Shown here one piece after another: positions 1-36,724 of a stretch of 64,000 nucleotides of DNA. Both the position numbers and the translations under genes were made by a program. The stretch spans positions 706,001 through 770,000 of the forward strand of contig JAWZYU010000124.1 in NCBI GenBank assembly GCA_038380435.1, read 5' to 3'. A model generated the notes under the pieces. The model saw only the letters and a program-made list of their open reading frames with translations. It was not told the DNA's origin and searched no databases. Each line of letters starts with the position of its first letter. Positions within the stretch are counted from its first letter, which is position 1. The stretch comes from Ryuthela nishihirai (lineage: Eukaryota; Arthropoda; Arachnida; Araneae; Heptathelidae).

Positions 1-104
1 ATGGGAACTAATTTTTATTCACCTATCCCCATTTTTTTCCCTTGCTCCACCGAGTGGTACATATGTATATGTATATATTTTTTTTTATTTCATTTTTTCC
101 AGCG

Positions 105-112
105 TGACGTCA
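105..112 (-). promoter_or_regulatory. CRE palindrome TGACGTCA upstream of an off-window gene copy
   Basis: A perfect TGACGTCA, the consensus CREB/ATF site. The equivalent site in the next units lies about 490 bp upstream of the transporter ATG on the minus strand, so this one should serve a copy left of position 1. A TATA-like AT run (about 60-90) lies on its gene-proximal side. Function as a promoter is inferred. Confidence 0.45.
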
Positions 113-1557
113 CCTGCAAACGAGACAGTGCTATACATGCGAGAAGAATATGGGGCAAGTAGAGTATACAAAAGTTTATTAAAGTTTATAAGATAATGAT
201 AGGAAATTTTAAAGTAATTTTCCTAATAAAATAAACAACCAGTACCAAATGTTTCTAAAATAATTCAATACCAGATGTTTACCGATCGTCAAACTACTCA
301 CGTGTTGACAATTCGATTTCGTTACCATCGTTGAAAGGTTCATAATAGACTTTTTTTCTTGAAATTTCCGTCATATCTATCTATTCTACCAACGCATGGA
401 ACTCTAGAAGAGTTTATCAAATGTTGTTTTTGATCTAAATTGGGACTGATTTTGCTGTAGGAATCGTTTCGTCTGGCATAAACGTTAGAAAGGATCCAAA
501 TTAATATATTTTTGCCTTAACGAATAATGGAGAAAAAAATGTCGTTTATTTAAATAAAATATCTCAGCTATTAATGCCTAAATGAAACGGAAAATTTTCT
601 TCTTATTAAATTCTTTCATTCGCTACAGTAAATAAGCCATTCTAGAGTAAATAAGCTATTATATTAAGCTTATTTTGCTAGAGTAAATAAGCTTTCATTT
701 GCTAGAGTAATTTCTAACCGCTTGGGTGAAGTTACCTTTACGTTTTGCCCTGCTATGCTTGTTTGGGAAAAGCTTTTCTGAATATCCTTTAATTACTCTA
801 TATGATTTCGCAAACGTATATCAGTTTATAAGGGGAGATCGTATTTTGAAGTTTTCCGATTTCTTGGTATATATAGTGTGAGGTAATTCTGTCGGAATAA
901 TTTTTCACTGCATAAGAAACTAACGGCTACTCACCACACTTCCCTTAATTGTCCGGATGATTTTAGAGAGGTATAAAAGTGTAAAACTGAAAAATGAATC
1001 TAACACGGAAAAATCTAAATCTGACAACAAAGGACAACCTATATATGACGTAGCAACGGTCTGCCCTACGCAACAGTACTCTCTGAAGGCTTTCATATCG
1101 TATATTATTTTCGCTGCGCAACAATTGGAATTCGAAAAAAACAATTGTTGTTCCTCAATTGTTATCGGTTGGCTTCGAAAAACGATGCTATGGATTCGTG
1201 GTTGTTTTACTCGGCCTTTGATCAAACGGAGACTTCCATTCCCTTTCCTTCCTGTCGACGGAGAATTTCAGAGCAAGTGTGTTATGCGATCCCTTTTTTT
1301 TTTGTCACACTATCGTTTTATTTCTTTTAGTTCTTCTGTAGGAGAGGGTCTATGGGTTGTGCGATCCATTTAGAGGTTCGATCGTGCCCATACCTCTGCT
1401 TTCCACAGACGTGAGCTATATGCTGTTTCTCCTAGAGTAGAGTGATTCACTGGATTTTTTTTTTTTTAAAGGTTTTCTAGGTTTTTCTTAGGAATTGGCG
1501 TTATTCTTGGGATTTTATTTGCTCACTTGTTCCTACCGCTTGGGTCGTGTCGGTCTT
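113..1557. other. AT-rich unit spacer, no gene recognised
   Basis: AT-rich sequence between the CRE and the dispersed-repeat module. It holds several imperfect copies of AGAGTAAATAAGC (616-710) and overlapping weak open frames at 920-1373 on both strands. Those frames differ between units through homopolymer indels and non-conservative changes, so I do not call them genes. The same spacer is present in every unit. Confidence 0.6.
616..710. repeat. Short tandem repeat of AGAGTAAATAAGC
   Basis: Four imperfect copies of a motif around GCTAGAGTAAATAAGC spaced about 20-35 bp, present in every unit. In unit 4 the piggyBac-like insertion landed in the TTAA within this cluster. Confidence 0.6.
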
Positions 1558-1885
1558 TCTTACTTCTGAGCAGCACTTTTTTTGCACACAATGGGCTAAA
1601 GGTCCAGGTCCCATAGACCACGAAGGCTCAGAGGAGGTTGGGGGGTACCCACTGGATCACCCAGTGGGGGGACAAGATGGTAGACTCAAGGCCATCCAGC
1701 GTGTTCATTAACGTGCACAGGATATGGCCCTCCCGCACACGGAGCCACGGCCTAATGTCCCATCCGACGGACGGCGGTCATTCCAATACCATCGGTGTCC
1801 TCTACTGACCGCGGGTAGGGCGGAGATTAATGTAAACGCAGGAAGAGACTTATGGGTGGAGGGTCACCAGCGTGTGAATTTACTT
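1558..1885 (+). repeat. Dispersed-repeat module (SINE/MITE-like, unclassified)
   Basis: A block starting near the motif TTTTTTTGCACACAATGG and running through CCCATCCGACGGACGG. Related copies lie inside the insertion at 20195-20475 (same strand), 23740-24010 (opposite strand) and, degenerate, 16738-16825. It is therefore an interspersed element captured in the macrosatellite unit. A small stem (1648-1655 with 1661-1668) lies inside. No Pol III boxes, coding potential or clear target duplications were seen, so its class is open. Confidence 0.6.
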
Positions 1886-1974
1886 TTTAAGTGTTCTGAC
1901 CTCCTCCTCCAACCCTTCGAACAAAATAACAGGGAGGTGTTTTGTGAATTGGGTTTCGATGCCGTGTGAAAATA

Positions 1975-2725
1975 ATTTAATGTTTGGTGTATTCCCCCGC
2001 TCTAAGGGGAAGTGGTTATGTGGTTAGGGTGTAGGTGTCGCGTGAAATTTTTTCGGTGTACTCTCCCCCCTAACAGGAAGGGGTTATGTGGCTTGGTTTT
2101 AGGTAGCGTGTGAAATTTTTTCGGTGTACTCTCCCCCCTAAGAGGAAGGGGTTATGTGGCTTGGTTTTAGGTAGCGTGTGAAAATTTTTTTGTGTATTCC
2201 CCCCCTCTAAGAGGAAGGGGTTATGTTGGTTGGGTGTAGGTATCGTGTGAAATTTTTTCGGTGAACTCTCCCCCCCCCCTAACAGGAAGGGGTCATGTGG
2301 GTTGGTTGTAGGTAGCGTGTGAAAATTTTCTGGTGTATTCCCACCGTCCAATAGGAAGGGGTTATTTGGGTTGGGTGTAGGTATCGTGTGAAAATTTTTC
2401 GGTGTACTCTCCCCCCCCCCATAAGAGGAAGGGGTTATGTTGGTTGGTTGTAGGTAGCGTGTGAAATTTTTTTGGTGTATTCCCACCGTCCAATAGGAAG
2501 GGGTTATGTGGATTAGGTGTAGGTATCGTGTGAAATTTTTTCGGTGTACTCTCCCCCCCCCCCTCCATAAGAGGAAGGGGTTATGTGGGTTGGTTGTAGG
2601 TAGCGTGTGAAAATTTTTTGGTGTATTCCCACCGTCCAATAGGAAGGGGTTGTGTGGGTGGGATGTAGGTATCGTGTGAAATTTTTTCGGTCCTCCTCTA
2701 AGAGGAAGGGGTTATGTGGGTTGGG
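1975..2725. repeat. C-run minisatellite, unit 1
   Basis: About eleven tandem copies of a ~68-72 bp monomer in two alternating types, with TAGGTAGCGTGTGAAA or TAGGTATCGTGTGAAA, each ending in a C-rich stretch followed by AGGAAGGGGTTATG. C-runs reach about ten or more bases and vary between copies. Long open frames here are by-products of the repeat and shift between units. Confidence 0.9.
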
Positions 2726-3205
2726 TGTCAAGGACCTGTGAATTATTTTTTTTTTCTTTTGTACCTTATTATGAAGTGTCGGGTGACTCTCAACTTCCCT
2801 TCACACTTTATCCAGGCTTAGGACTGGCAGCGCATTGCGCTGGCGTGTTTAAAAGTTGTCTGTCTCTCTGGTGGACTTGGTATCATAGCACAATGTGCAG
2901 AGTTTTAACAACGACATAGAAAAAAGAATACAGTGCACAGCAAAAGTGACATACAAACAATACAAACATACAGGAAACAGCGAGAGTGTCTTCTCTTTGC
3001 TTTTAAGAAATTTTTTATATATTTTTTTTTTATTTTTGAACATTTAAATATTTTTTTTTTATTTTTGAACATTTAAATATTTTTTTTTTGGTTTTTTGAT
3101 TTTCACTTAATTCTTTTTTCAGTTTTTCCTGTTTAGGATGCCAAACCCTTCCCGGACATGGCGGTCAGTCCCGGAAGGGGAGGCCGCTTCCCGATAGCTG
3201 CGACA
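2726..3205. other. 3' flank of transporter copy 1
   Basis: Sequence downstream of the gene on its coding strand. It holds the AATAAA signals and an AT-rich repeat (3026-3086) with GAACATTTAAATA twice. The repeat is present once in units 2, 3 and 6 and three times in unit 5, a small VNTR. No gene seen. Confidence 0.6.
3029..3063 (-). terminator. Poly(A) signals of transporter copy 1
   Basis: Two AATAAA hexamers on the minus strand at 3058-3063 and 3029-3034, about 143 and 172 bp after the stop codon. A single equivalent is found in copies 2, 3 and 5. Use of the signal is inferred. Confidence 0.5.
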
Positions 3206-4597
3206 TCACACTGCGGTGGTGAAGACGTCGAGCCGTTCCTTGAGCGACGCTGCCGCCCGACCCCTCCTCTGGATCAAGACAGCAGAGACGTGCAAGGCGA
3301 CGCCGAAGGCCGTGGCCACACACATCTTCGATCCCATGAAGAGCAGGACTGCGCGGTCGCCACCGGTGGACCGGAGCAGTCCTGCCACGGGAGGGTAGAT
3401 GAGGTTGGCCACTCCCTGGAAGAGCCGCACCAGGGTGAAGGTGCCGTTCATGTTGTCGACTCCGTGATTCGAGCTAAGCAGGAGGGGGATCAGGATGGTC
3501 CACACTCCGGTTCCCACTCCTGCGGCGACGGAGGCAACAACAAGCTGCCAGTACTCGCGGCAGAAAGGCAGTGAGATGACGGCTGCAGCCGAGACGGAGA
3601 CGGCCGCGATGTATTCGGCCGTCCTCGGCAGGGGAGAGCGGCTGGCGAGAAGACCATACGAGAGGCGCACGACCAGGTCGCCGGCAGCAGAGTAGGCGAG
3701 AAGCAGCATGGCACTGCTCTTCTCGATCCCCAGCGACTTGGCGTGCTGGGGAATGTAGTGCAGGAAGTGAGGGTTGCCCATACCCATCGCGAAGATGGAA
3801 GCGCTCGTGAGGAGGAACAGGCCGTCCGTGAGGAAACGGAGGGACAACCTCTCGGCGACCACCTTCGCGCAGGATCTGGGTGCCAGCTCTCCAGCTTCCG
3901 CGGGGGTCACGACGACGGCATCGTTGCTGCCGCCGGCGGGCACCTCGCGGAAGCGGCTCTCGGGCCGAACGAAGAGCAGGCCGCAGACTGCGATGAGCGT
4001 GAAGCAGCCGGCCAGCACGAGGAACGTGTAGTGCAGGCCGACCGCCAGCAGCAGCTCGTTGATCGCAGTGGGTAGGGCCATGGCCCCGAAGCAGCCTCCC
4101 GACAGGGCGACGGCCATCGCTGCCGGCCTCCGTGTCGTGAAGTACTTTCCAGTGCACACTATGCCGGTGGTGATGGCAAAGGATGCACCGACCCCCATGA
4201 GGCCTCCAATGGTACCTATGAGGAAGGAACCGGAGGTGGCCAGGTAGCTGAGGGCAAGGCCAGCGCTGCACAGCAATCCGCCCAGACACACGAGCGGCCT
4301 GTATCCGAAGGTAGACATGAGGATCCCTGTCACCGGTGAGAAGACCAGCGATAGGGTTCCTAGCAGCCCCGGGATCCAGGCCGCCTGGGACGGAGATGTA
4401 TCAGGATACTCCAGGAAGATCGCCACCTTCAGAGCGCTGAAGGACTTGACGAATCCTGAAAGGAGAAAGGTTATGAGAAAGCAGCCACCAGCGACGGCCC
4501 ACCCGTATCCTCCATCGGGTGGAACCATCTTGGTGGCTGTGGTGGCGTTGGCACGCTCTTCCTCTACTCCCTTCGTCGCTGCAACTGGAACGGACAT
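3206..4597 (-). CDS. Monocarboxylate transporter-like MFS protein (SLC16 family), copy 1
   Basis: Single-exon coding sequence of 463 codons for a predicted 12-helix plasma-membrane transporter of the monocarboxylate transporter (SLC16) type. SLC16 members carry lactate, pyruvate or other small substrates; this one's substrate is unknown. Seen: the family signature DGGYGW at residues 28-33 entering TM1; Lys51, aligning with the TM1 lysine of MCT1; the TM5 signature YFTTRRPAAMAVALSGG at 152-168; a hydrophilic loop at about 211-258 between TM6 and TM7; and the TM8 Asp307-x3-Arg311 pair matching the essential pair of MCT1. Length is normal for the family. The start is supported by a good context (CCACCATG), by conservation in all copies and by a splice acceptor 21 nt upstream. 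Coding DNA is much GC-richer than its flanks. It differs from copy 2 at only two residues (Tyr64, Phe255). Confidence 0.9.
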   Translation of the reverse strand: MSVPVAATKGVEEERANATTATKMVPPDGGYGWAVAGGCFLITFLLSGFVKSFSALKVAIFLEYPDTSPSQAAWIPGLLGTLSLVFSPVTGILMSTFGYRPLVCLGGLLCSAGLALSYLATSGSFLIGTIGGLMGVGASFAITTGIVCTGKYFTTRRPAAMAVALSGGCFGAMALPTAINELLLAVGLHYTFLVLAGCFTLIAVCGLLFVRPESRFREVPAGGSNDAVVVTPAEAGELAPRSCAKVVAERLSLRFLTDGLFLLTSASIFAMGMGNPHFLHYIPQHAKSLGIEKSSAMLLLAYSAAGDLVVRLSYGLLASRSPLPRTAEYIAAVSVSAAAVISLPFCREYWQLVVASVAAGVGTGVWTILIPLLLSSNHGVDNMNGTFTLVRLFQGVANLIYPPVAGLLRSTGGDRAVLLFMGSKMCVATAFGVALHVSAVLIQRRGRAAASLKERLDVFTTAV

Positions 4598-4618
4598 GGT
4601 GGAATCCGGCTCAGGTCA

Positions 4619-4923
4619 CTGCAAAAGAAGGAGAAAAAAAATTAATAATTAGAATTGGTAGAGTTAATATAAATCAGTAGTGCGTCGACTAAAGACCACT
4701 ACAGACTATGCTGAAGAATACTGAACCAAAGAGTAAGCGAAAAGGTTACTATGAGGTAAAGTCGGGAGCTGGAAAACGCACGTCTGTAGCTGTCAGTGGT
4801 CGCAGAGCAAAGGGACGGGCGTTGCACTCAGTGGCACGAGTTGTAAAACCCGTTGGCGTCACAGGGAAAACCCAGGGGATTAGTAAAACCCGTTGGCGTC
4901 AGGGAGAAAACCCAGGGGTTTAC
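4619..4923 (-). other. Putative 305 bp 5'-UTR intron of transporter copy 1
   Basis: On the coding strand a polypyrimidine tract (TTTTTTTTCTCCTTCTTTTG) ends in CAG at 4619-4621, a strong acceptor leaving 21 nt of UTR before the ATG. The best donor is TAG|GTAAAC with GT at 4923-4922. The length is 305 bp in all five copies that retain the region. A tandem duplication of a 40 bp block lies within it (4844-4923). An alternative donor, CAG|GTGACG, overlaps the CRE further upstream. Confidence 0.6.
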
Positions 4924-4956
4924 CTACTACCGGTCGTACAGGGTTCGGGTTTCGCG

Positions 4957-4966
4957 CTGCCATCTA
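4957..4966 (-). promoter_or_regulatory. TAGATGGCAG motif, insulator/YY1-like core
   Basis: Reads TAGATGGCAG on the minus strand, matching the 3' core of CTCF-type sites, in the presumed 5'-UTR exon. It is conserved in the units. Motif match only; no functional claim. Confidence 0.2.
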
Positions 4967-5079
4967 TGTGCAAGCATGGGAACTAATTTTTATTCACCTA
5001 TCCCCATTTTTTTCCCTTGCTCCACCGAGTGGTACATATGTATATGTATATATTTTTTTTTATTTCATTTTTTCCAGCG

Positions 5080-5087
5080 TGACGTCA
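5080..5087 (-). promoter_or_regulatory. CRE palindrome upstream of transporter copy 1
   Basis: Perfect TGACGTCA about 485 bp upstream of the copy 1 ATG. On the gene-proximal side, after a short A-rich stretch, lies a TATA-like run at about 5041-5060. Together these make a plausible core promoter. The transcription start site is not determinable. Confidence 0.45.
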
Positions 5088-6532
5088 CCTGCAAACGAGA
5101 CAGTGCTATACATGCGAGAAGAATATGGGGCAAGTAGAGTATACAAAAGTTTATTAAAGTTTATAAGATAATGATAGGAAATTTTAAAGTAATTTTCCTA
5201 ATAAAATAAACAACCAGTACCAAATGTTTCTAAAATAATTCAATACCAGATGTTTACCGATCGTCAAACTACTCACGTGTTGACAATTCGATTTCGTTAC
5301 CATCGTTGAAAGGTTCATAATAGACTTTTTTTCTTGAAATTTCCGTCATATCTATCTATTCTACCAACGCATGGAACTCTAGAAGAGTTTATCAAATGTT
5401 GTTTTTGATCTAAATTGGGACTGATTTTGCTGTAGGAATCGTTTCGTCTGGCATAAACGTTAGAAAGGATCCAAATTAATATATTTTTGCCTTAACGAAT
5501 AATGGAGAAAAAAATGTCGTTTATTTAAATAAAATATCTCAGCTATTAATGCCTAAATGAAACGGAAAATTTTCTTCTTATTAAATTCTTTCATTCGCTA
5601 CAGTAAATAAGCCATTCTAGAGTAAATAAGCTATTATATTAAGCTTATTTTGCTAGAGTAAATAAGCTTTCATTTGCTAGAGTAATTTCTAACCGCTTGG
5701 GTGAAGTTACCTTTACGTTTTGCCCTGCTATGCTTGTTTGGGAAAAGCTTTTCTGAATATCCTTTAATTACTCTATATGATTTCGCAAACGTATATCAGT
5801 TTATAAGGGGAGATCGTATTTTGAAGTTTTCCGATTTCTTGGTATATATAGTGTGAGGTAATTCTGTCGGAATAATTTTTCACTGCGTAAGAAACTAACG
5901 GCTACTCACCACACTTCCCTTAATTGTCCGGATGATTTTAGAGAGGTATAAAAGTGTAAAACTGAAAAATGAATCTAACACGGAAAAATCTAAATCTGAC
6001 AACAAAGGACAACCTATATATGACGTAGCAACGGTCTGCCCTACGCAACAGTACTCTCTGAAGGCTTTCATATGGTATATTATTTTCGCTGCGCAACAAT
6101 TGGAATTCGAAAAAAACAATTGTTGTTCCTCAATTGTTATCGGTTGGCTTCGAAAAACGATGCTATGGATTCGTGGTTGTTTTACTCGGCCTTTGATCAA
6201 ACGGAGACTTCCATTCCCTTTCCTTCCTGTCGACGGAGAATTTCAGAGCAAGTGTGTTATGCGATCCCTTTTTTTTTTTGTCACACTATCGTTTTATTTC
6301 TTTTAGTTCTTCTGTAGGAGAGGGTCTATGGGTTGTGCGATCCATTTAGAGGTTCGATCGTGCCCATACCTCTGCTTTCCACAGACGTGAGCTATATGCT
6401 GTTTCTCCTAGAGTAGAGTGATTCACTGGATTTTTTTTTTTTTAAAGGTTTTCTAGGTTTTTCTTAGGAATTGGCGTTATTCTTGGGATTTTATTTGCTC
6501 ACTTGTTCCTACCGCTTGGGTCGTGTCGGTCT

Positions 6533-6860
6533 TTCTTACTTCTGAGCAGCACTTTTTTTGCACACAATGGGCTAAAGGTCCAGGTCCCATAGACCACGAA
6601 GGCTCAGAGGAGGTTGGGGGGTACCCACTGGATCACCCAGTGGGGGGACAAGATGGTAGACTCAAGGCCATCCAGCGTGTTCATTAACGTGCACAGGATA
6701 TGGCCCTCCCGCACACGGAGCCACGGCCTAATGTCCCATCCGACGGACGGCGGTCATTCCAATACCATCGGTGTCCTCTACTGACCGCGGGTAGGGCGGA
6801 GATTAATGTAAACGCAGGAAGAGACTTATGGGTGGAGGGTCACCAGCGTGTGAATTTACT
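6533..6860 (+). repeat. Dispersed-repeat module, unit 2
   Basis: Full-length version matching 1558-1885, including the 191 bp segment that units 3 and 5 lack. Confidence 0.6.
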
Positions 6861-6949
6861 TTTTAAGTGTTCTGACCTCCTCCTCCAACCCTTCGAACAA
6901 AATAACAGGGAGGTGTTTTGTGAATTGGGTTTCGATGCCGTGTGAAAAT

Positions 6950-7700
6950 AATTTAATGTTTGGTGTATTCCCCCGCTCTAAGGGGAAGTGGTTATGTGGT
7001 TAGGGTGTAGGTGTCGCGTGAAATTTTTTCGGTGTACTCTCCCCCCTAACAGGAAGGGGTTATGTGGCTTGGTTTTAGGTAGCGTGTGAAATTTTTTCGG
7101 TGTACTCTCCCCCCTAAGAGGAAGGGGTTATGTGGCTTGGTTTTAGGTAGCGTGTGAAAATTTTTTTGTGTATTCCCCCCCTCTAAGAGGAAGGGGTTAT
7201 GTTGGTTGGGTGTAGGTATCGTGTGAAATTTTTTCGGTGAACTCTCCCCCCCCCCTAACAGGAAGGGGTCATGTGGGTTGGTTGTAGGTAGCGTGTGAAA
7301 ATTTTCTGGTGTATTCCCACCGTCCAATAGGAAGGGGTTATTTGGGTTGGGTGTAGGTATCGTGTGAAAATTTTTCGGTGTACTCTCCCCCCCCCATAAG
7401 AGGAAGGGGTTATGTTGGTTGGTTGTAGGTAGCGTGTGAAATTTTTTTGGTGTATTCCCACCGTCCAATAGGAAGGGGTTATGTGGATTAGGTGTAGGTA
7501 TCGTGTGAAATTTTTTCGGTGTACTCTCCCCCCCCCCCTCCATAAGAGGAAGGGGTTATGTGGGTTGGTTGTAGGTAGCGTGTGAAATTTTTTTGGTGTA
7601 TTCCCACCGTCCAATAGGAAGGGGTTGTGTGGGTGGGATGTAGGTATCGTGTGAAATTTTTTCGGTCCTCCTCTAAGAGGAAGGGGTTATGTGGGTTGGG
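6950..7700. repeat. C-run minisatellite, unit 2
   Basis: Same monomers and order as in unit 1, differing mainly in C-run and T-run lengths. Confidence 0.9.
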
Positions 7701-8002
7701 TGTCAAGGACCTGTGAATTATTTTTTTTTTCTTTTGTACCTTATTATGAAGTGTCGGGTGACTCTCAACTTCCCTTCACACTTTATCCAGGCTTAGGACT
7801 GGCAGCGCATTGCGCTGGCGTGTTTAAAAGTTGTCTGTCTCTCTGGTGGACTTGGTATCATAGCACAATGTGCAGAGTTTTAACAACGACATAGAAAAAA
7901 GAATACAGTGCACAGCAAAAGTGACATACAAACAATACAAACATACAGGAAACAGCGAGAGTGTCTTCTCTTTGCTTTTAAGAAATTTTTTATATATTTT
8001 TT

Positions 8003-8008
8003 TTTATT
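8003..8008 (-). terminator. Poly(A) signal of transporter copy 2
   Basis: AATAAA on the minus strand about 143 bp beyond the stop codon, in the single copy of the AT-rich repeat. Confidence 0.5.
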
Positions 8009-8150
8009 TTTGAACATTTAAATATTTTTTTTTTGGTTTTTTGATTTTCACTTAATTCTTTTTTCAGTTTTTCCTGTTTAGGATGCCAAACCCTTCCCGG
8101 ACATGGCGGTCAGTCCCGGAAGGGGAGGCCGCTTCCCGATAGCTGCGACA

Positions 8151-9542
8151 TCACACTGCGGTGGTGAAGACGTCGAGCCGTTCCTTGAGCGACGCTGCCG
8201 CCCGACCCCTCCTCTGGATCAAGACAGCAGAGACGTGCAAGGCGACGCCGAAGGCCGTGGCCACACACATCTTCGATCCCATGAAGAGCAGGACTGCGCG
8301 GTCGCCACCGGTGGACCGGAGCAGTCCTGCCACGGGAGGGTAGATGAGGTTGGCCACTCCCTGGAAGAGCCGCACCAGGGTGAAGGTGCCGTTCATGTTG
8401 TCGACTCCGTGATTCGAGCTAAGCAGGAGGGGGATCAGGATGGTCCACACTCCGGTTCCCACTCCTGCGGCGACGGAGGCAACAACAAGCTGCCAGTACT
8501 CGCGGCAGAAAGGCAGTGAGATGACGGCTGCAGCCGAGACGGAGACGGCCGCGATGTATTCGGCCGTCCTCGGCAGGGGAGAGCGGCTGGCGAGAAGACC
8601 ATACGAGAGGCGCACGACCAGGTCGCCGGCAGCAGAGTAGGCGAGAAGCAGCATGGCACTGCTCTTCTCGATCCCCAGCGACTTGGCGTGCTGGGGAATG
8701 TAGTGCAGGAAGTGAGGGTTGCCCATACCCATCGCGAAGATGGAAGCGCTCGTGAGGAGGAACAGGCCGTCCGTGAGGATACGGAGGGACAACCTCTCGG
8801 CGACCACCTTCGCGCAGGATCTGGGTGCCAGCTCTCCAGCTTCCGCGGGGGTCACGACGACGGCATCGTTGCTGCCGCCGGCGGGCACCTCGCGGAAGCG
8901 GCTCTCGGGCCGAACGAAGAGCAGGCCGCAGACTGCGATGAGCGTGAAGCAGCCGGCCAGCACGAGGAACGTGTAGTGCAGGCCGACCGCCAGCAGCAGC
9001 TCGTTGATCGCAGTGGGTAGGGCCATGGCCCCGAAGCAGCCTCCCGACAGGGCGACGGCCATCGCTGCCGGCCTCCGTGTCGTGAAGTACTTTCCAGTGC
9101 ACACTATGCCGGTGGTGATGGCAAAGGATGCACCGACCCCCATGAGGCCTCCAATGGTACCTATGAGGAAGGAACCGGAGGTGGCCAGGTAGCTGAGGGC
9201 AAGGCCAGCGCTGCACAGCAATCCGCCCAGACACACGAGCGGCCTGTATCCGAAGGTAGACATGAGGATCCCTGTCACCGGTGAGAAGACCAGCGATAGG
9301 GTTCCTAGCAGCCCCGGGATCCAGGCCGCCTGGGACGGAGATGTATCAGGAAACTCCAGGAAGATCGCCACCTTCAGAGCGCTGAAGGACTTGACGAATC
9401 CTGAAAGGAGAAAGGTTATGAGAAAGCAGCCACCAGCGACGGCCCACCCGTATCCTCCATCGGGTGGAACCATCTTGGTGGCTGTGGTGGCGTTGGCACG
9501 CTCTTCCTCTACTCCCTTCGTCGCTGCAACTGGAACGGACAT
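8151..9542 (-). CDS. Monocarboxylate transporter-like MFS protein (SLC16 family), copy 2
   Basis: 463 codons, identical to copy 1 except Phe64 (Tyr in copy 1) and Ile255 (Phe in copy 1). All landmarks are kept: DGGYGW 28-33, Lys51, the TM5 RR motif near 156-157, Asp307 and Arg311, with 12 hydrophobic segments. The start is fixed by CCACCATG and the splice acceptor at 9564-9565. Phe64 is the state in copies 3, 4 and 5, so Tyr64 of copy 1 is the newer change. Conversely Ile255 is unique to this copy. The near identity to copy 1, extending through the non-coding flanks, means a very recent duplication, gene conversion or an assembly duplicate. Confidence 0.9.
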   Translation of the reverse strand: MSVPVAATKGVEEERANATTATKMVPPDGGYGWAVAGGCFLITFLLSGFVKSFSALKVAIFLEFPDTSPSQAAWIPGLLGTLSLVFSPVTGILMSTFGYRPLVCLGGLLCSAGLALSYLATSGSFLIGTIGGLMGVGASFAITTGIVCTGKYFTTRRPAAMAVALSGGCFGAMALPTAINELLLAVGLHYTFLVLAGCFTLIAVCGLLFVRPESRFREVPAGGSNDAVVVTPAEAGELAPRSCAKVVAERLSLRILTDGLFLLTSASIFAMGMGNPHFLHYIPQHAKSLGIEKSSAMLLLAYSAAGDLVVRLSYGLLASRSPLPRTAEYIAAVSVSAAAVISLPFCREYWQLVVASVAAGVGTGVWTILIPLLLSSNHGVDNMNGTFTLVRLFQGVANLIYPPVAGLLRSTGGDRAVLLFMGSKMCVATAFGVALHVSAVLIQRRGRAAASLKERLDVFTTAV

Positions 9543-9563
9543 GGTGGAATCCGGCTCAGGTCA

Positions 9564-9868
9564 CTGCAAAAGAAGGAGAAAAAAAATTAATAATTAGAAT
9601 TGGTAGAGCTAATATAAATCAGTAGTGCGTCGACTAAAGACCACTACAGACTATGCTGAAGAATACTGAACCAAAGAGTAAGCGAAAAGGTTACTATGAG
9701 GTAAAGTCGGGAGCTGGAAAACGCACGTCTGTAGCTGTCAGTGGTCGCAGAGCAAAGGGACGTGCGTTGCACTCAGTGGCACGAGTTGTAAAACCCGTTT
9801 GCGTCAAGGGGAAAACCCAGGGGATTTGTAAAACCCGTTGGCGTCAGGGAGAAAACCCAGGGGTTTAC
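9564..9868 (-). other. Putative 305 bp 5'-UTR intron of transporter copy 2
   Basis: Same pyrimidine tract and CAG acceptor and same TAG|GTAAAC donor as copy 1, with identical length. Confidence 0.6.
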
Positions 9869-10024
9869 CTACTACCGGTCGTACAAGGTTCGGGTTTCGC
9901 GCTGCCATCTATGTGCAAGCATGGGAACTAATTTTTCTTCACCTATCCCCATTTTTTTCCATTGCTCCACCGAGTGGTACATATGTATATGTGTATATTT
10001 TTTTTTATTTCATTTTTTCCAGTG

Positions 10025-26465: not shown

Positions 26466-26478
26466 GGTAGTGAAAGGG
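26466..26478 (-). repeat. Right terminal inverted repeat of the TTAA element
   Basis: Complement of CCCTTTCACTACC, immediately followed by TTAA (26479-26482). Confidence 0.8.
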
Positions 26479-26655: not shown

Positions 26656-27309
26656 CTCGCGGAAGCAGCTCTCGGGCCGAACGAAGAGCAGGCCGCAGAC
26701 TGCGATGAGCGTGAAGCAGCCGGCCAGCACGAGGAACGTGTAGTGCAGGCCGACCGCCAGCAGCAGCTCGTTGATCGCAGTGGGCAGGGCCATGGCCCCG
26801 AAGCAGCCTCCCGACAGGGCGACGGCCATCGCTGCCGGCCTCCGTGTCGTGAAGTACTTTCCAGTGCACACTATGCCGGTTGTGATGGCAAAGGATGCAC
26901 CGACCCCCATGAGGCCTCCAATGGTACCTATGAGGAAGGAACCGGAGGTGGCCAGGTAGCTGAGGGCAAGGCCAGCGCTGCACAGCAATCCGCCCAGACA
27001 CACGAGCGGCCTGTATCCGAAGGTAGACATGAGGATCCCTGTCACCGGTGAGAAGACCAGCGAGAGGGTTCCTAGCAGCCCCGGGATCCAGGCCGCCTGA
27101 GACGGAGATGTATCAGGAAACTCCAGGAAGATCGCTACCTTCAGAGCGCTGAAGGACTTGACGAATCCTGAAAGGAGAAAGGTTATGAGAAAGCAGCCAC
27201 CAGCGACGGCCCACCCGTATCCTCCATCGGGTGGAACCATCTTGGTGGCTGTGGTGGCGTTGGCACGCTCTTCCTCTACTCCCTTCGTCGCTGCAACTAG
27301 AACGGACAT
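26641..27309 (-). pseudogene. SLC16-like transporter copy 4, N-terminal half only
   Basis: An open frame of 222 codons equals residues 1 to about 220 of the intact copies, then reads two foreign residues to a stop inside the spacer. It holds DGGYGW, Lys51, the TM5 RR motif and TM1-TM6, and ends in the central loop. The C-terminal six-helix half with Asp307/Arg311 is gone. Differences from copy 1 include Leu4, Phe64 and Cys215. Promoter sequence, CRE and 5'-UTR intron are intact, but the normal poly(A) region is deleted. Most likely a dead gene. A stable half-transporter cannot be excluded but lacks precedent here. Confidence 0.85.
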
Positions 27310-27330
27310 GGTGGAATCCGGCTCAGGTCA

Positions 27331-27635
27331 CTGCAAAAGAAGGAGAAAAAAATTTAATAATTAGAATTGGTAGAGCTAATATAAATCAGTAGTGCGTCGA
27401 CTAAAGACCACTACAGACTATGCTGAAGAATACTGAACCAAAGAGTAAGCAAAAAGGTTACTATGAGGTAAAGTCGGGAGCTGGAAAACGCACGTCTGTA
27501 GCTGTCAGTGGTCGCAGAGCAAAGGGACGGGCGTTGCACTCAGTGGCACGAGTTGTAAAACCCGTTGGCGTCAGGGGGAAAACCCAGTGGATTTGTAAAA
27601 CCCGTTGGCGTCAGGGAGAAAACCCAGGGGTTTAC
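27331..27635 (-). other. Putative 305 bp 5'-UTR intron of transporter copy 4
   Basis: Acceptor and donor are as in copy 1, still 305 bp although the gene is truncated. Confidence 0.55.
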
Positions 27636-27791
27636 CTACTACCGGTCGTACAAGGTTCGGGTTTCGCGCTGCCATCTATGTGCAAGCATGGGAACTAATT
27701 TTTCTTCACCTATCCCCATTTTTTTCCCTTGCTCCACCGAGTGGTACATATGTATATGTATATATTTTTTTTTATTTCATTTTTTCCAGCG

Positions 27792-27799
27792 TGACGTCA
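27792..27799 (-). promoter_or_regulatory. CRE palindrome upstream of transporter copy 4
   Basis: TGACGTCA intact upstream of the truncated copy. Confidence 0.45.
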
Positions 27800-29239
27800 C
27801 CTGCAAACGAGACAGTGCTATATATGCGAGAAGAATATGGGGCAACTAGAGTATACAAAAGTTTATTAAAGTTTATAAGATAATGATAGGAAATTTTAAA
27901 GTAATTTTCGTAATAAAATAAAACACCAGTACCAAATGTTTCTAAAATAATTCAATACCAGATGTTTACCGATCGTCAAACTACTCACGTGTTGACAATT
28001 CGATTTCGTTACCATCGTTGAAAGGTTCCTAATAGACTTTTTTTCTTGAAATTTCCGTCATATCTATCTATTCTACCAACGCATGGAACTCTAGAAGAGT
28101 TTATCAAATGTTGTTTTTGATCTAAATTGGGACTGATTTTGCTGTAGGAATCGTTTCGTCTGGCATAAACGTTAGAAAGGATCCAAATTAATATATTTTT
28201 GCCTTAACGAATAATGGAGAAAAAAATGTCGTTTATTTAAATAAAATATCTCAGCTATTAATGCCTAAATGAAACGGAAAATTTTCTTCTTATTAAATTC
28301 TTTCATTTGCTACAGTAAATAAGCCATTCTAGAGTAAATAAGCTATTATATTAAGCTCATTTTGCTAGAGTAAATAAGCTTTCATTTGCTAGAGTAATTT
28401 CTAACCGCTTGGGTGCAGTTACCTTTACGTTTTGCCCTGCTATGCTTGTTTGGGAAAAGCTTTTCTGAATATCCTTTAATTACTCTATATGATTTCGCAA
28501 ACGTATATCAGTTTATAAGGGGAAATCGTATTTTGAAGTTTTCCGATTTATTGGTATATATAGTGTGAGGTAATTCTGTCGGAATAATTTTTCACTGCAT
28601 AAGAAACTAACGGCTACTCACCACACTTCCCTTAATTGTCCGGATGATTTTAGAGAGGTATAAAAGTGTAAAACTGAAAAATGAATCTAACACGGAAAAA
28701 TCTAAATATGACAACAAAGGACAACCTATATACGACGTAGCAACGGTCTGCCCTACGCAACAGTACTCTCTGAAGGCTTTCATATCGTATATTATTTTCG
28801 CTGCGCAACAATTGGAATTCGAAAAAAACAATTGTTGTTCCTCAATTGTTATCGGTTGGCTTCGAAAAACGATGGTATGGATTTGTGGTTGTTTTACTCG
28901 GCCTTTGATCAAACGGAGACTTCCATTCCCTTTCCTTCCTGTCGACGGAGAATTTCAGAGCAAGTGTGTTATGCGATCCCTTTTTTTTTGTCACACTATC
29001 GTTTTATTTCTTTTAGTTCTTCTGTAGGAGAGGGTCTATGGGTTGTGCGATCCATTTAGAGGTTCGATCGTGCCCATACCTCTGCTTTCCACAGACGTGA
29101 GTTATATGCTGTTTCTCCTAGAATAGAGTGATTCACTGGATTTTTTTTTTTTTCTAAAGGTTTTCTAGGTTTTTCTTAGCAATTGGCATTATTCCTGGGA
29201 TTTTATTTGCTCACTTGTTCCTACCGCTTGGGTCGTGTC

Positions 29240-29385
29240 GGTCTTTCTTACTTCTGAGCAGCACTTTTTTTGCACACAATGGGCTAAAGGTCCAGGTCCC
29301 ATAGACCACGAAGGCTCAGAGGAGGTTGGGGGTACCCACTGGATCACCCAGTGGGGGGACAAGATGGTAGACTCCCTTTACTTTT
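29240..29385 (+). repeat. Dispersed-repeat module, internally deleted (unit 5)
   Basis: Same GACTCCC/TTTACTTTTTAAG join as unit 3, so both descend from one deletion or have exchanged sequence. Confidence 0.65.
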
Positions 29386-29474
29386 TAAGTGTTCTGACCT
29401 CCTCCTCCAACCCTTCGAACAAAATAACAGGGAGGTGTTTTGTGAATTGGGTTTCGATGCCGTGTGAAAATAAT

Positions 29475-30313
29475 TTAATGTTTGGTGTATTCCCCCGCTC
29501 TAAGAGGAAGTGGTTATGTGGTTAGGGTGTAGGTGTCGCGTGAAATTTTTTCAGTGTACTCTCCCCCCTAACAGGAAGGGGTTATGTGGCTTGGTTTTAG
29601 GTAGCGTGTGAAAATTTTTTTGTGCATTCCCCCCCTCTAAGAGGAAGGGGTTATGTTGGTTGGGTGTAGGTATCGTGTGAAATTTTTTCGGTGAACTCTC
29701 CCCCCCCCCTAACAGGAAGGGGTCATGTGGGTTGGTTGTAGATAGCGTGTGAAAATTTTCTGGTGTATTCCCACCGTCCAATAGGAAGGAGTTATTTGGG
29801 TTGGGTGTAGGTATCGTGTGAAAATTTTTCGGTGTACTCTCCCCCCCCCCCCCATAAGAGGAAGGGGTTATGTTGGTTGGTTGTAGGTAGCGTGTGAATT
29901 TTTTTTGGTGTATTCCCACCGTTCAGTAGGAAGGGGTTATGTGGATTAGGTGTAGGTATCGTGTGAAATTTTTTCGGCGTACTCTCCCCCCCCTCCATAA
30001 TAGGAAGGGGTTATGTGGGTTGGTTGTAGGTAGCGTGTGAATTTTTTTTGGTGTATTCCCACCGTCCAGTAGGAAGGGGTTATGTGGATTAGGTGTAGGT
30101 ATCGTGTGAAATTTTTTCGGTGTACTCTCCCCCCCCCCTCCATAAGAGGAAGGGGTTATGTGGGTTGGTTGTAGGTAGCGTGTGAAAATTTTTTGGTGTA
30201 TTCCCACCGTCCAATAGGAAGGGGTTGTGTGGGTTGGATGTAGGTATCGTGTGAAATTTTTTCGGTGTATCCACCCCTCCTCTAAGAGGAAGGGGTTATG
30301 TGGGTTGGGTGTC
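29475..30313. repeat. C-run minisatellite, unit 5
   Basis: Longest of the five minisatellites. A duplicated pair of monomers at about 29900-30140 accounts for the extra length. Confidence 0.88.
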
Positions 30314-30606
30314 AAGGACTTGTGAATTATGTTTTTTTCTTTTCTACCTTATTATGAAGTGTCGGGTGACTCTCAACTTCCCTTCACACTTTATCCAGGC
30401 TTAGGACTGGCAGCGCATTGCGCTGGCGTGTTTAAAAGTTGTCTGTCTCTCTGGTGGACTTTGTATCATAGCACAATGTGCAGAGTTTTAACAACGACAT
30501 AGAAAAAAGAATACAGTGCACAGCAAAAGTGACATACAAACATACAGGAAACAGCGAGAGTGTCTTCTCTTTGCTTTTAAGAAATTTTTTATATATATAT
30601 TTTTTT

Positions 30607-30612
30607 TTTATT
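30607..30612 (-). terminator. Poly(A) signal of transporter copy 5
   Basis: AATAAA on the minus strand about 187 bp beyond the stop codon, displaced by the extra AT-rich repeats. Confidence 0.45.
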
Positions 30613-30798
30613 TTTGAACATTTAAATATTTTTTTTTGAACATTTAAATATTTTTTTTTGAACATTTAAATATTTTTTTTTTGGTTTTTTGATTTTCACT
30701 TAATTCTTTTTTCAGTTTTTCCTGTTTAGGATGCCAAACCCTTCCCGGACATGGCGGTCAGTCCCGGAAGGGGAGGCCGCTTCCCGATAGCTGCGACA

Positions 30799-32184
30799 TC
30801 ACACAGCGGTGGTGAAGACGTCGAGCCGTTCCTTGAGCGACGCTGACGCCCGACTCCTCCTCTGGACCAAGACAGCAGAGACGTGCAAGGCGACGCCGAA
30901 GGCCGTGGCCACACACATCTTCGATCCCATGAAGAGCAGGACCGCGCGGTCGCCACCGGTGGACCGGAGCAGTCCTGCCACGGGAGGGTAGATGAGGTTG
31001 GCCACTCCCTGGAAGACCCGCACCAGGGTGAAGGTGCCGTTCATGTTGTCGAATCCGTGATTCGAGCTAAGCAGGAGGGGGATCAGGATGGTCCACACTC
31101 CGGTTCCCACTCCTGCGGCGACGGAGGCAACAACAAGCTGCCAGTACTCGCGGCAGAAAGGCAGTGAGATGACGGCTGCAGCCGAGACGGAGACGGCCGC
31201 GATGTATTCGGCCGTCCTCGGTAGGGGAGAGTGGCTGGCGAGAAGACCATACGAGAGGCTCACGACCAGGTCGCCGGCAGCAGAGTAGGCGAGAAGCAGC
31301 ATGGCACTGCTCTTCTCGATCCCCAGCGACTTGGCGTGCTGGGGAATGTAGTGCAGGAAGTGAGGGTTGCCCATACCCATCGCGAAGATGGAAGTGCTCG
31401 TGAGGAGGAACAGGCCGTCCGTGAGGAAACGGAGGGACAGCCTCTCGGCGACCACCTTCGCGCAGGATCTGGGTGCCAGCTCTCCAGCTTCCGCGGGGGT
31501 CACGACGACGGCATCGTTGCTGCCGCCGGCGGGCACCTCGCGGAAGCGGCTCTCGGGCCGAACGAAGAGCAGGCCGCAGACTGCGATGAGCGTGAAGCAG
31601 CCGGCCTGCACGAGGAACGTGTAGTGCAGGCCGACCGCCAGCAGCAGCTCGTTGATCGCAGTGGGCAGGGCCATGGCCCCGAAGCAGCCTCCCGACAGGG
31701 CGACGGCCATCGCTGCCGGCCTCCGTGTCGTGAAGTACTTTCCAGTGCACACTATGCCGGTGGTGATGGCAAAGGATGCACCGACCCCAATGAGGCCTCC
31801 AATGGTACCTATGAGGAAGGAACCGGAGGTGGCCAGGTAGCTGAGGGCAAGGCCAGCGCTGCACAGTAATCCGCCCAGACACACGAGCGGCCTGTATCCG
31901 AAGGTAGACATGAGGATCCCTGTCACTGGTGAGAAGACCAGCGAGAGGGTTCCTAGCAGCCCCGGGATCCAGGCCGCCTGGGACGGAGATGTATCAGGGA
32001 ACTCCAGGAAGATCGCCACCTTCAGAGCGCTGAAGGACTTGACGAATCCTGAAAGGAGAAAGGTTATGAGAAAGCAGCCACCAGCGACGGCCCACCCGTA
32101 TCCTCCATAGGGTGGAACCATCTTGGTGGCTGTGGTGGCGTTGGCACGCTCTTCCTCTACTCCCTTCGTCACTGCAACGGACAT
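30799..32184 (-). CDS. SLC16-like transporter copy 5, full length but lacking two hallmark residues
   Basis: 461 codons, open throughout. It is two residues shorter near the N-terminus and keeps 12 predicted helices, the TM1 lysine and the TM5 RR motif. Two positions that define the family are changed. The TM1 motif is YGGYGW instead of DGGYGW (residue 26; GAT to TAT). The TM8 pair reads Asp-x3-Ser instead of Asp-x3-Arg (residue 309; CGC to AGC). In MCT1 the corresponding TM8 Asp/Arg pair is required for transport. Other changes include Ile for Met in TM4, Gln for Leu in TM6, Ser near 444 and Ser near 448. The gene may be a recent non-functional copy with an intact frame, or it may have altered specificity. 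Start supported as in copy 1; CRE, intron and poly(A) signal present. Confidence 0.85.
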   Translation of the reverse strand: MSVAVTKGVEEERANATTATKMVPPYGGYGWAVAGGCFLITFLLSGFVKSFSALKVAIFLEFPDTSPSQAAWIPGLLGTLSLVFSPVTGILMSTFGYRPLVCLGGLLCSAGLALSYLATSGSFLIGTIGGLIGVGASFAITTGIVCTGKYFTTRRPAAMAVALSGGCFGAMALPTAINELLLAVGLHYTFLVQAGCFTLIAVCGLLFVRPESRFREVPAGGSNDAVVVTPAEAGELAPRSCAKVVAERLSLRFLTDGLFLLTSTSIFAMGMGNPHFLHYIPQHAKSLGIEKSSAMLLLAYSAAGDLVVSLSYGLLASHSPLPRTAEYIAAVSVSAAAVISLPFCREYWQLVVASVAAGVGTGVWTILIPLLLSSNHGFDNMNGTFTLVRVFQGVANLIYPPVAGLLRSTGGDRAVLLFMGSKMCVATAFGVALHVSAVLVQRRSRASASLKERLDVFTTAV

Positions 32185-32205
32185 GGTGGAATCCGGCTCA
32201 GGTCA

Positions 32206-32510
32206 CTGCAAAAGAAGGAGAAAAAAAATTAATAATTAGAATTGGTAGAGCTAATATAAATCAGTAGTGCGTCGACTAAAGACCACTACAGACTATGCTG
32301 AAGAATACTGAACCAAAGAGTAAGCGAAAAGGTTACTATGAGGTAAAGTCGGGAGCTGGAAAACGCACGTCTGTAGCTGTCAGTGGTCGCAGAGCAAAGG
32401 GACGGGCGTTGCACTCAGTGGCACGAGTTGTAAAACCCGTTGGCGTCAGGGGGAAAACCCAGGGGATTAGTAAAACCCGTTGGCGTCAGGGAGAAAACCC
32501 ACGGGTTTAC
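32206..32510 (-). other. Putative 305 bp 5'-UTR intron of transporter copy 5
   Basis: Same acceptor and donor and the same 305 bp length as in the other copies. Confidence 0.6.
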
Positions 32511-32666
32511 CTACTACCGGTCGTACAAGGTTCGGGTTTCGCGCTGCCATCTATGTGCAAGCATGGGAACTAATTTTTCTTCACCTATCCCCATTTTTTT
32601 CCCTTGCTCCACCGAGTGGTACATATGTATATGTATATATTTTTTTTTATTTCATTTTTTCCAGCG

Positions 32667-34109: not shown

Positions 34110-34445
34110 GGTCTTTCTTACTTCTGAGCAGCACTTTTTTTGCACACAATGGGCTAAAGGTCCAGGTCCCATAGACCACGAAGGCTCAGAGGAGGTTGGG
34201 GGGTACCCACTGGATCACCCAGTGGGGGGAAAAGATGGTAGACTCCCCTCAAGGCCATCCAGCGTGTTCTTTAACGTGCACAGGATATGGACCTCCCGCA
34301 CACGGAGCCACGGCCTAATGTCCCATCCGACGGATGGCGGTCATTCCAATACCATCGGTGTCCTCTACTGACCGCGGGTAGGGCGGAGATTAATGTAGAC
34401 GCAGGAAGACACCTATGGGTGGAGGGTCACCAGCGTGTGAATTTA
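34110..34445 (+). repeat. Dispersed-repeat module, unit 6
   Basis: Contains the 191 bp segment and the intermediate sequence GACTCCCCTCAAGGCC. This explains both the short form in units 1 and 2 and the deletion join in units 3 and 5, so it is probably closest to the ancestral state. Confidence 0.6.
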
Positions 34446-34544
34446 CTTTTTAAGTGTTCTGACCTCCTCCTCCAACCCTTCGAACAAAATAACAGGGAGG
34501 TGTTTTGTGAATTGGGTTTCGATGCCATGTGAAAATAACTTAAT

Positions 34545-35030
34545 GTTTGGTGTATTCGCTCCCCCCCACTCTAAGAGGAAGTGGTTACGTGGTTAGGGTG
34601 TAGGTGTCATGTGAAATTTTTTCGGTGTACTCTCCCCCCTAACAGGAAGGGGTTATGTGGCTTGGTTTTAGGTAGCGTGTGAAATTTTTTTTGTGTATTC
34701 CCCCTCTAAGTGGTAGGGGTTATGTTGGTTGGGTGTAGGTATCGTGTAAAATTTTTTCGGTGAACTCTCCCCCCCCAACAGGAAGGGATTATGTGGGTTG
34801 GTTGTAGATAGCGTGTGAAACTTTTTTGGTGTATTCCCACCGTCCAATAGCAAGGGGTTATGTGGGTTGTGTGTACGTATCGTGTGAAATTTTTTCGGTT
34901 TTCTCTCCCCCCCCCGTGTAACAGGAAGTGGTTATGTGGGTTGGGTGTAGGTACCGTGTAAAAATTTTTGGGTGTATTCCCCCCCCCTCCTCTAAGAGGA
35001 AGGGGTTTTGTCGGTTGGGTGTCGACGACC
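34545..35030. repeat. C-run minisatellite, unit 6
   Basis: About seven monomers, with more substitutions and fewer copies than other units. Confidence 0.85.
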
Positions 35031-35463
35031 TGTGAATTATTTTTTTTTCATTTGTTCCTTTTATGAGGTGTCGGGTGACTCTCAACTTCCCTTCACACTT
35101 TATCCAGGCTTAGCACTGGCAGCGCATTGCGCTGGTGTGTTTAAAAGTTGTCAGTCTCTCTGGTAGACTTCGTGTCATAGCACAATGTGCCGAGTTTTAC
35201 AACGACATAGAAAAAAAAATACAATGCACAGAAAAAGTGACATACAAGAAATACAAACATACAGGAAACAGCGAGAGTGTTTTCTCTTTGCTTTTATGAA
35301 ATTTTTTATATTTTTTTATATTTTTGAACATTTAAATATTTTTTTTTGGTTTTTTGATTTTCACTTATTTCTTTTTTCAGTTTTTCCTATTTAGGATGCC
35401 AAACCCTTCCCGGACATGGCGGTCAATACCGGAAGGGGAGGCCGCTTCCCGATAGCTGCGACA

Positions 35464-36724
35464 TCACACTGCGGTGGTGAAGACGTCGAGCCGTTATTTG
35501 AGCGACGCTGCCGCCCGACCCCTCCTCTGGATCAAGACAGCAGAGACGTGCAAGGCGACGCCGAAGGCCATGGCCACACACATCTTCGATCCCATGTAGA
35601 GCAGGACTGCGCGGTCGCCACCGGTGGACCGGAGCAGTCCTGCCACGGGAGGGTAGATGAGGTTGGCCACTCCCTGGAAGAGCCGCACCAGGGTGAAGGT
35701 GCCATTCATGTTGTCGACTCCGTTATTCGAGCTAAGCAGGAGGGGGATCAGGATGGTCCACACTCCGGTTCCCACTCCTGCGGCGACGGAGGCAACAACA
35801 AGCTCTCAGTACTCGCGGCAGAAAGGCAGTGAGATGACGGCTGCAGCCGAGACGGAGACGGCCGCGTTGTAATCGGCCGTCCTTGGCAGGGGAGAGCGGC
35901 TGGCCAGAAGACCATACGAGAGGCGCACGACCAGGTCGCCGGCAGCAGAGTAGGCGAGAAGCAGCATGGCACTGTACTTCTCGATCCCCAGCGACCTAGC
36001 GTGCTGGGGAGTGTAGTGCAGGAAGTGAGGATTGCCCATACCCATCGCGAAGATGTAAGAGCTCTTGAGGAGGAACAGGCCATCCGTGAGGAAACGGAGG
36101 GAGAGCCTCTCACCAACCACCTTCGCGCAGGATCTGGGTGCCAGCTCTCCAGCTTCCGCGGAGGTCATGACGACGGCATCATTGCTGCCACCGGCGGGCA
36201 CCTCGCGGAAGCGACTCTCAGGCCGAACGAAGAGCAGGTCTCAGACTGCGATGAACGTGAAGCAGCCGGCCAGCACGAGGAAGGTGTAGTGCAGGCCGAC
36301 CGCCAGCAGCAGCTCATTGATCGCAGTGGGCAGGGCCATGGCCCCGAAGCAGCCTCCCGACTGTACGACGGCCATCGCTGCCGGCCTCTATATCGTGAAG
36401 TACTTTCCAGTGCACACTATGCCAGTGGTGATGGTAAAGGATGCAGCAACACCCATGAGGCCTCCAATGGTACCTATGAGGAAGGAACCGTAGGTGGCCA
36501 GGTAGCTGAGGGCAAGGCCAGCGTTGCACAGCAATCCGCCCAAACACACGAGAGGCCTGTATCCGAAGGTAGACATGAGGATTCCTGTTACCTTAAGAAG
36601 ACCAGTGAGAAGGTCCCTAGCAGCTCCGGAATCCAGGCCGCCTGGGACGGAGATGTATCAGGAAACTCCAGGAAGATCGCCACCTTCAGAGCGCTGAAGG
36701 CCTTGACGAATCCTGAAAGGAGAA
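35464..36724 (-). pseudogene. SLC16-like transporter copy 6, decayed and 5'-truncated
   Basis: Homologous to the intact copies from the stop codon position (35464) to about residue 47, where satellite DNA replaces the 5' end. The ATG, the DGGYGW motif, the 5'-UTR intron and the promoter are all gone. Premature stops are visible after SLK near the C-terminus (~35493), after CREY (~35805), at Cys205 (~36240) and after YFTI in TM5 (~36387). A 2 bp deletion near 36592 shifts the frame. TM8 Asp and Arg are still encoded. Clearly a pseudogene and older or less homogenised than its neighbours. Confidence 0.92.

What the first reader, a model, noticed from the sequence alone, without database searches (positions are those of the whole stretch)
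1..36724. Macrosatellite that amplifies a complete SLC16-like transporter gene
At least six head-to-tail ~4.9 kb units each carry (or carried) a transporter gene with its promoter-like region, 5'-UTR intron and poly(A) region. Only two of six are clearly intact. The family call rests on visible SLC16 motifs; the idea that copy number matters for dosage or adaptation is inference.
Basis: partly seen in the sequence, partly recalled or inferred. Interest (0 to 1): 0.75.

Follow-up and report, generated by a model that had tools for sequence, protein, structure and literature searches.

The report
Transporter gene in a giant macrosatellite
The window is the decaying end of a tandem array in an arachnid genome where a 5-kb unit carrying a monocarboxylate-transporter-like gene is repeated about 2,450 times in the assembly, and the gene's coding sequence appears to be kept intact by selection.

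Summary
Confirmed, and far larger than reported. The window holds six head-to-tail units (three with intact genes, not two), ending in a 616-bp satellite at 36,725. It is the last 64 kb of a 770-kb contig whose array spans about 700 kb. Across the 3.11-Gb assembly a unit-spacer probe matches 2,457 times and an exact 174-nt coding probe 1,923 times; reversed-pattern controls 0. The gene is SLC16-like: Pfam MFS_1, closest solved relatives MCT2 and MCT1, Lys/Asp/Arg transport residues aligned. Of 29 complete array copies read, 28 are open. Against an intact paralog on a 56-Mb contig, pN/pS is 0.17. Sub-arrays differ at about 1% of spacer sites but at 0-1 of 1,392 coding sites (consensus-type units), though new coding mutations do arise. 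The array edge and seven of eight copies read elsewhere are damaged. Best reading: a coding macrosatellite enlarged and homogenised by unequal exchange or conversion and kept open by selection, probably for dose. Expression, substrate and read-depth copy number are untested; about 2,000 units were counted but not located. Host: a tetrapulmonate arachnid by one gene tree. Kind known (RS447/USP17, D4Z4); scale for an animal and coding-restricted uniformity look new.

The parts
1..4975 (-). Unit U1 (window start is arbitrary within the array)
   Evidence: self-BLAST and MAFFT of units, 99.7-99.9% to U2 over most of its length
3206..4597 (-). Gene copy c1, intact, 463 aa, SLC16-like transporter
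   Evidence: open frame; MFS_1; MCT2/MCT1 in PDB
4598..4975 (-). 5' region of c1 with acceptor-like tract ending at 4619; putative 5'-UTR intron (inferred)
   Evidence: read; tract kept in diverged copies
1983..2728 (.). 69-bp minisatellite in U1; comparable arrays in U2 (6959-7703), U3 (11728-12408), U5 (29484-30312), U6 (34576-35022)
   Evidence: Tandem Repeats Finder
4976..9920 (-). Unit U2
8151..9542 (-). Gene copy c2, intact, 463 aa
9921..14522 (-). Unit U3
12851..14145 (-). Gene copy c3, 97-bp deletion with frameshift
14523..27687 (-). Unit U4: split by the insert and carrying an internal deletion of about 3.1 kb
15186..26482 (.). 11.3-kb insert with TTAA and 13-base inverted ends (piggyBac-like ends), no protein domain found
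   Evidence: 17-base end match, 2 sites, 0 in 100 shuffles; Pfam in six frames
26649..27309 (-). Gene copy c4, truncated (5' half only)
27688..32562 (-). Unit U5
30799..32184 (-). Gene copy c5, intact, 461 aa
32563..36724 (-). Unit U6, the array edge: 92-95% like the others from minisatellite through CDS, spacer 98.5-98.9%
35464..36724 (-). Gene copy c6, start lost at the satellite junction, frameshift
36725..64000 (.). 616-bp satellite made of 32-33-bp subunits, bordering the array on the 5' side of the genes

Best explanation
A coding macrosatellite: a unit of about 5 kb (spacer, 69-bp minisatellite, one complete single-coding-exon SLC16-like transporter gene) multiplied to about 2,450 units (about 12 Mb) in long arrays. 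Shown: copy number in the assembly, openness of the copies read, long-term constraint on the protein, decay at this array edge. Inferred: units multiply and are homogenised by unequal exchange and gene conversion; single-copy mutations are tolerated because of redundancy, but units with damaged coding sequence do not spread, so the coding sequence stays uniform across sub-arrays while spacers drift; copies at the satellite border and outside the arrays escape this and decay. The likely benefit is a large dose of one transporter, probably a proton-coupled carboxylate carrier or a related solute carrier.
For: Counts 2,457 (spacer, up to 3 mismatches), 1,923 (exact 174-nt CDS), 2,913 (57-nt CDS, up to 3 mismatches), reversed controls 0. 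28 of 29 complete array copies read are open; 92 of 92 scored protein hits open (a list of best hits). pN/pS 0.17 against the intact C31 paralog, 47 S: 21 N. Core against edge-proximal C124 units: CDS 28 polymorphic: 1 fixed (synonymous), spacer 22: 19, p=9e-5. Edge copies c3 (18 S: 9 N) and c6 (29 S: 33 N) are short of nonsynonymous change. Lys51, Asp307, Arg311 align with MCT2.
Against: Young variants among 21 C124 copies are 19 N: 9 S, no sign of selection on single copies (p 0.34-0.51); c5 is 9 S: 14 N, not significant. No expression, transport or read-depth data. Synonymous sites are also unusually uniform between sub-arrays (pooled and rough), so conversion directed to the CDS may explain part of the pattern without protein-level selection. 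C140, C125 and C142 are represented by one complete unit each in the divergence comparisons. About 2,000 of the counted units were not located.
Confidence: 0.72

Rival explanations
1. A selfish or neutral satellite that happens to contain a gene: recent expansion makes the copies look intact and nothing now selects for the protein.
For: Young coding variants look neutral, 19 N: 9 S; arrays border other satellites; satellite-like scale.
Against: pN/pS 0.17 against the C31 paralog; coding sequence fixed across sub-arrays while spacers drift, p=9e-5; older edge copies short of nonsynonymous change. The C31 comparison could reflect constraint before the expansion.
Confidence: 0.2
2. Amplification tied to the germline, a sex chromosome or meiotic drive, as for ampliconic gene families, rather than somatic dose.
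For: Extreme copy number on unplaced contigs; a known coding macrosatellite, CT47, is normally germline-restricted (passage of PMC3599962).
Against: No direct evidence either way. Relatives, old and intact, sit on several large contigs, so the family is not confined to one chromosome.
Confidence: 0.12
3. Assembly artefact or double counting: repeats over-expanded, or two haplotypes of the same arrays counted twice.
For: No reads were available; contig C124 ends at exactly 770,000 bases; arrays end at contig ends on C124, C140 and C142.
Against: Units differ in length between contigs (4,880, 5,036, 5,044, 5,135 bp) and carry private variants; C124 and C125 have other DNA at the array's outer side. 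Double counting would at most halve the number.
Confidence: 0.06

Closest known systems
Human macrosatellite RS447 (USP17 deubiquitinase)
   Same: Unit of 4.7 kb, each encoding one enzyme, in a tandem array (passages of PMC3599962)
   Different: 20-103 units in 37 individuals there, about 2,450 here; different protein; there copy variation between people is measured, here not
D4Z4 (DUX4; the gene name is recalled), CT47 and FLJ40296/PRR20 macrosatellites
   Same: Kilobase units each carrying a gene (passages of PMC3599962)
   Different: Tens of units; human; roles in disease or germline expression, none of which could be tested here
Dinoflagellate tandem gene arrays (peridinin-chlorophyll a-protein of Lingulodinium)
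   Same: Thousands of identical tandem copies, proposed to evolve in concert like rDNA (passages of PMC2488372)
   Different: Protist with unusual genome biology and trans-splicing; here an arachnid, with minisatellite and satellite surroundings
SLC16 monocarboxylate transporters (MCT1, MCT2)
   Same: MFS_1, TM1 DGG-aromatic-GW motif, aligned Lys/Asp/Arg
   Different: About 25% identity to mammalian MCT2; substrate unknown; C-terminus differs between the array gene and its C31 paralog

Membership tests
SLC16 / MCT family | Major facilitator domain | tested here: met
   PF07690 E=7.6e-26, 91.3 bits, cut-off 33.4
SLC16 / MCT family | Closest characterised relatives are MCTs | tested here: met
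   12 PDB sequences at E up to 0.001, named MCT2, MCT1, MCT8 or MCT10
SLC16 / MCT family | TM1 motif [D/E]G[G/S][W/F][G/A]W (recalled) | tested here: inconclusive
   DGGYGW: Tyr where the recalled motif has Trp/Phe
SLC16 / MCT family | Transport residues Lys (TM1), Asp and Arg (TM8) (roles recalled) | tested here: met
   K51, D307, R311 aligned to MCT2 and kept in P0001, P0002
SLC16 / MCT family | Carboxylate or related transport activity | not testable with these tools
Coding macrosatellite | Kilobase unit repeated head to tail | tested here: met
Coding macrosatellite | Complete open gene in the units | tested here: met
   28 of 29 complete array copies open; c3, c4, c6 broken
Coding macrosatellite | Copy number varies between individuals | not testable with these tools
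   one assembly only
piggyBac-like element (insert 15186-26482) | TTAA target site and short inverted ends | tested here: met
   17-base match at both ends
piggyBac-like element (insert 15186-26482) | DDE transposase | tested here: not met
   no Pfam match in six frames apart from one weak, sub-cut-off chance match; at most a non-autonomous relative

The most novel reading that the evidence does not exclude
A multi-megabase protein-coding macrosatellite in an animal in which the coding sequence rather than the whole unit is what stays uniform across sub-arrays: selection for an extreme dose of one carboxylate-type transporter, with array-wide loss of damaged copies and perhaps conversion directed to the coding sequence. 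If the host is a vinegaroon, which the gene tree allows but does not show, a link with its acetic-acid spray (recalled knowledge) could be tested directly.
Probability: 0.3. Interest if true: 0.88.

Novelty: new variant of a known kind. Interest (0 to 1): 0.74.

Why it matters
Gene-bearing macrosatellites are best known from the human genome, with tens of units and unclear roles. An array of about 2,450 units with measurable constraint on its coding sequence makes two open questions testable: whether selection can act on an array as a whole when single copies are redundant, and whether homogenisation can be focused on coding sequence. It also shows that real gene content can sit in satellite-like contigs.

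Tried and rejected
Protein content of the 11.3-kb insert: no domain (one adenovirus E3A match at E=0.028 and one CFAP300 match at E=0.043, both below cut-off, judged chance). Rfam families and tRNAs in the window: none. Named close relatives of the transporter: no named protein above 35% identity in the lists (each scored about 8,000 candidates). Satellite unit in viral contigs: none. Literature on a tandem SLC16 array: none seen in the listings (titles and abstract starts only; subscription papers are not held). CpG decay as a general cause of edge mutations: CpG transitions are 10 of 22 private CDS changes in U3 but 15 of 58 in U6, so not general. Earlier estimate of 2,900 units (note): dropped, because the 57-mer also finds old relatives outside the arrays. 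Structure prediction: not available. Search of the own genome with P0002: not completed.
Full report
WHAT WAS CHECKED. The window contains six head-to-tail units on 1-36,724: 4,975, 4,945 and 4,602 bp, a split unit U4, 4,875 bp, and an edge unit cut at 36,724. The genes lie on the minus strand. c1, c2 and c5 are open (463, 463, 461 aa), so three of six, not two. c3 has a 97-bp deletion, c4 has lost its 3' half in a deletion of about 3.1 kb, c6 lacks its start and is frameshifted.

THE INTERRUPTION. 15186-26482 is a clean insertion: the 17 bases TTAACCCTTTCACTACC stand inverted at both ends, two sites in the window and none in 100 shuffles. The ends are piggyBac-like (recalled features), but no transposase domain was found in six frames.

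THE BOUNDARY. From 36,725 to the end there is a 616-bp satellite built of 32-33-bp subunits: period 616 gives 97.6% self-match and the last 32 of 41 successive comparisons are 1.000. The outermost unit U6 is 92-95% like the others from the minisatellite through the CDS, but its spacer is 98.5-98.9%: decay at the edge, with a sharp change inside the unit.

THE REAL SIZE. The window is G000:C124:706001-770000 in an assembly of 3,110,830,574 bases and 1,680 contigs; C124 is 770,000 bases long. On C124, units fill every stretch sampled from 42.0 kb on and none of those sampled up to 38.4 kb, so this one array is about 700 kb. C125 carries an array starting between 80.4 and 95.0 kb and ending between 383 and 395 kb, with other DNA on both sides; C140 has array from base 1 to somewhere in 580-600 kb, then satellite-like sequence (judged by eye; no BLAST match to the window's satellite); C142 has the window's satellite up to 90,215 and array from there to its last sampled stretch. 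In these three contigs with a satellite border, the satellite lies on the 5' side of the genes. The four contigs hold about 2.1 Mb, some 430 units by length.

GENOME-WIDE COUNTS. CDS 57-mer, up to 3 mismatches: 2,913. Exact CDS 174-mer: 1,923. Spacer 57-mer, up to 3 mismatches: 2,457. The reversed-pattern control is 0 in all three. In the sequence I hold, the spacer probe occurs about once per unit and not in the two outside copies tested. I take about 2,450 as the number of units (about 12 Mb, 0.4% of the assembly); units with a broken gene are included. Only the first 100 or so places are listed in each answer, so the other roughly 2,000 units were counted but not located. Haplotype double counting is possible.

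ARE THE COPIES GENES? One search scored 92 of 3,519 candidates: 92 of 92 are full-length open frames, 91 with the same score; that list is selected for the best. I read 29 complete array copies: 21 of 22 open on C124 (c1 and c2 included; the exception has K245stop), 6 of 6 on C125, C140 and C142, and c5 (listed as partial because its alignment starts at base 13). c3, c4 and c6 are not among the 29. Eight copies outside the big arrays were read: seven are damaged and 89-92% identical to the array CDS; the eighth, on the 56-Mb contig C31 with four listed hits at 3,988-bp spacing, is intact with a different C-terminus.

CONSTRAINT. Array consensus against the C31 paralog over 1,323 bases: 47 synonymous, 21 nonsynonymous, pN/pS 0.17, p 7e-13 to 1e-10 by assumed transition bias. 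Edge copies against the consensus: c3 18 S: 9 N, c6 29 S: 33 N, both short of N; c4 5 S: 3 N, borderline; c5 9 S: 14 N, not significant. Young variants among 21 of the 22 full-length C124 copies (the one with an indel left out): 19 N: 9 S, no different from chance (p 0.34-0.51). So single copies are hardly selected, while the long-term sequence is.

CODING-RESTRICTED UNIFORMITY. Units of C124, C140 and C125 differ at 0-4 of 1,392 CDS sites (0-1 for the two consensus-type C124 units) but at 17-23 of about 1,640-1,680 spacer sites. Fixed differences between seven core C124 units and one unit each: C140 CDS 1, spacer 20; C125 0 and 15; C142 0 and 3. Seven core against nine edge-proximal C124 units (one intermediate unit left out of both groups): CDS 28 polymorphic: 1 fixed, spacer 22: 19, p=9e-5. 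Both fixed CDS differences are synonymous. The 5' region does not show the deficit clearly (5 polymorphic: 4 fixed). Synonymous sites also look too uniform, but that test pools overlapping sets and is rough. Conversion directed to the CDS or selection on codons (GC3 0.77 against 0.37-0.59 in eight other MFS reading frames of this genome) may add to selection on the protein.

WHAT THE PROTEIN IS. MFS_1; the solved relatives at E up to 0.001 are MCT1, 2, 8 and 10. The MCT2 alignment pairs K51, D307 and R311 with residues that carry proton and substrate in MCTs (roles recalled); they are kept in P0001 (60%) and P0002 (40%), both unnamed. One array copy has R311H. The substrate is unknown.

HOST. 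The genome's vesicular acetylcholine transporter, one open frame, is 69-73% identical to the named spider proteins and 75% to an unnamed one. In a tree of 26 rows it branches next to spiders plus that unnamed sequence, support 100: a tetrapulmonate arachnid, perhaps Pedipalpi or an early spider. Contig sizes (C14 77 Mb, C23 67 Mb, C31 56 Mb, C32 51 Mb) would fit the high chromosome numbers reported for these groups (passages of PMC11855311). This rests on one gene.

HOW IT PROBABLY WORKS. Units multiply by unequal exchange or segmental amplification and conversion keeps them alike. A damaged copy does no harm by itself, but damaged units do not spread, so the coding sequence stays fixed while spacers diverge. 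The likely gain is dose. Exchange, conversion and dose are inference.

COMPARISON. The kind is known: RS447/USP17, 4.7 kb and 20-103 units, and CT47, D4Z4 and others (passages of PMC3599962); thousands of identical tandem genes in dinoflagellates (passages of PMC2488372). New here, as far as the searches named above go, are the gene family, the host group, the scale for an animal, and the coding-restricted uniformity.

Noticed in passing
15186-26482: 11.3-kb insert with TTAA and 13-base inverted ends but no transposase domain; it contains several diverged copies of a shorter repeat.
   Followed up: partly
36725-64000; C142:1-90215; C140 from 580-600 kb: 616-bp satellite of 32-33-bp subunits with strong AT skew (about -0.48); the same satellite precedes the C142 array, and a similar-looking one follows the C140 array.
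   Followed up: partly
L065 (C31:44675593-44676984): Intact paralog with another C-terminus; four listed hits at 3,988-bp spacing on a 56-Mb contig, possibly nearer the ancestral locus.
   Followed up: partly
L063, L064, L066-L070: Seven damaged relatives, 89-92% identical, outside the big arrays; six match the array CDS only up to base 1275-1323, suggesting they share the other C-terminus, and L063 and L064 share a stop at the same codon.
   Followed up: partly
window about 1553-1823 and the same phase in other units: Each spacer carries a copy of a dispersed repeat that also occurs at about 72-84% identity in several unrelated loci of the genome (L001, L003-L005, L019, L028, L029, L034).
   Followed up: no
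window end (C124:770000): The contig ends at exactly 770,000 bases inside the satellite, perhaps a cut made by scaffolding software.
   Followed up: no
c3 (12851-14145), c6 (35464-36724): CpG transitions are 10 of 22 private CDS changes in U3 and 15 of 58 in U6, possibly a trace of methylation in silent copies.
   Followed up: no
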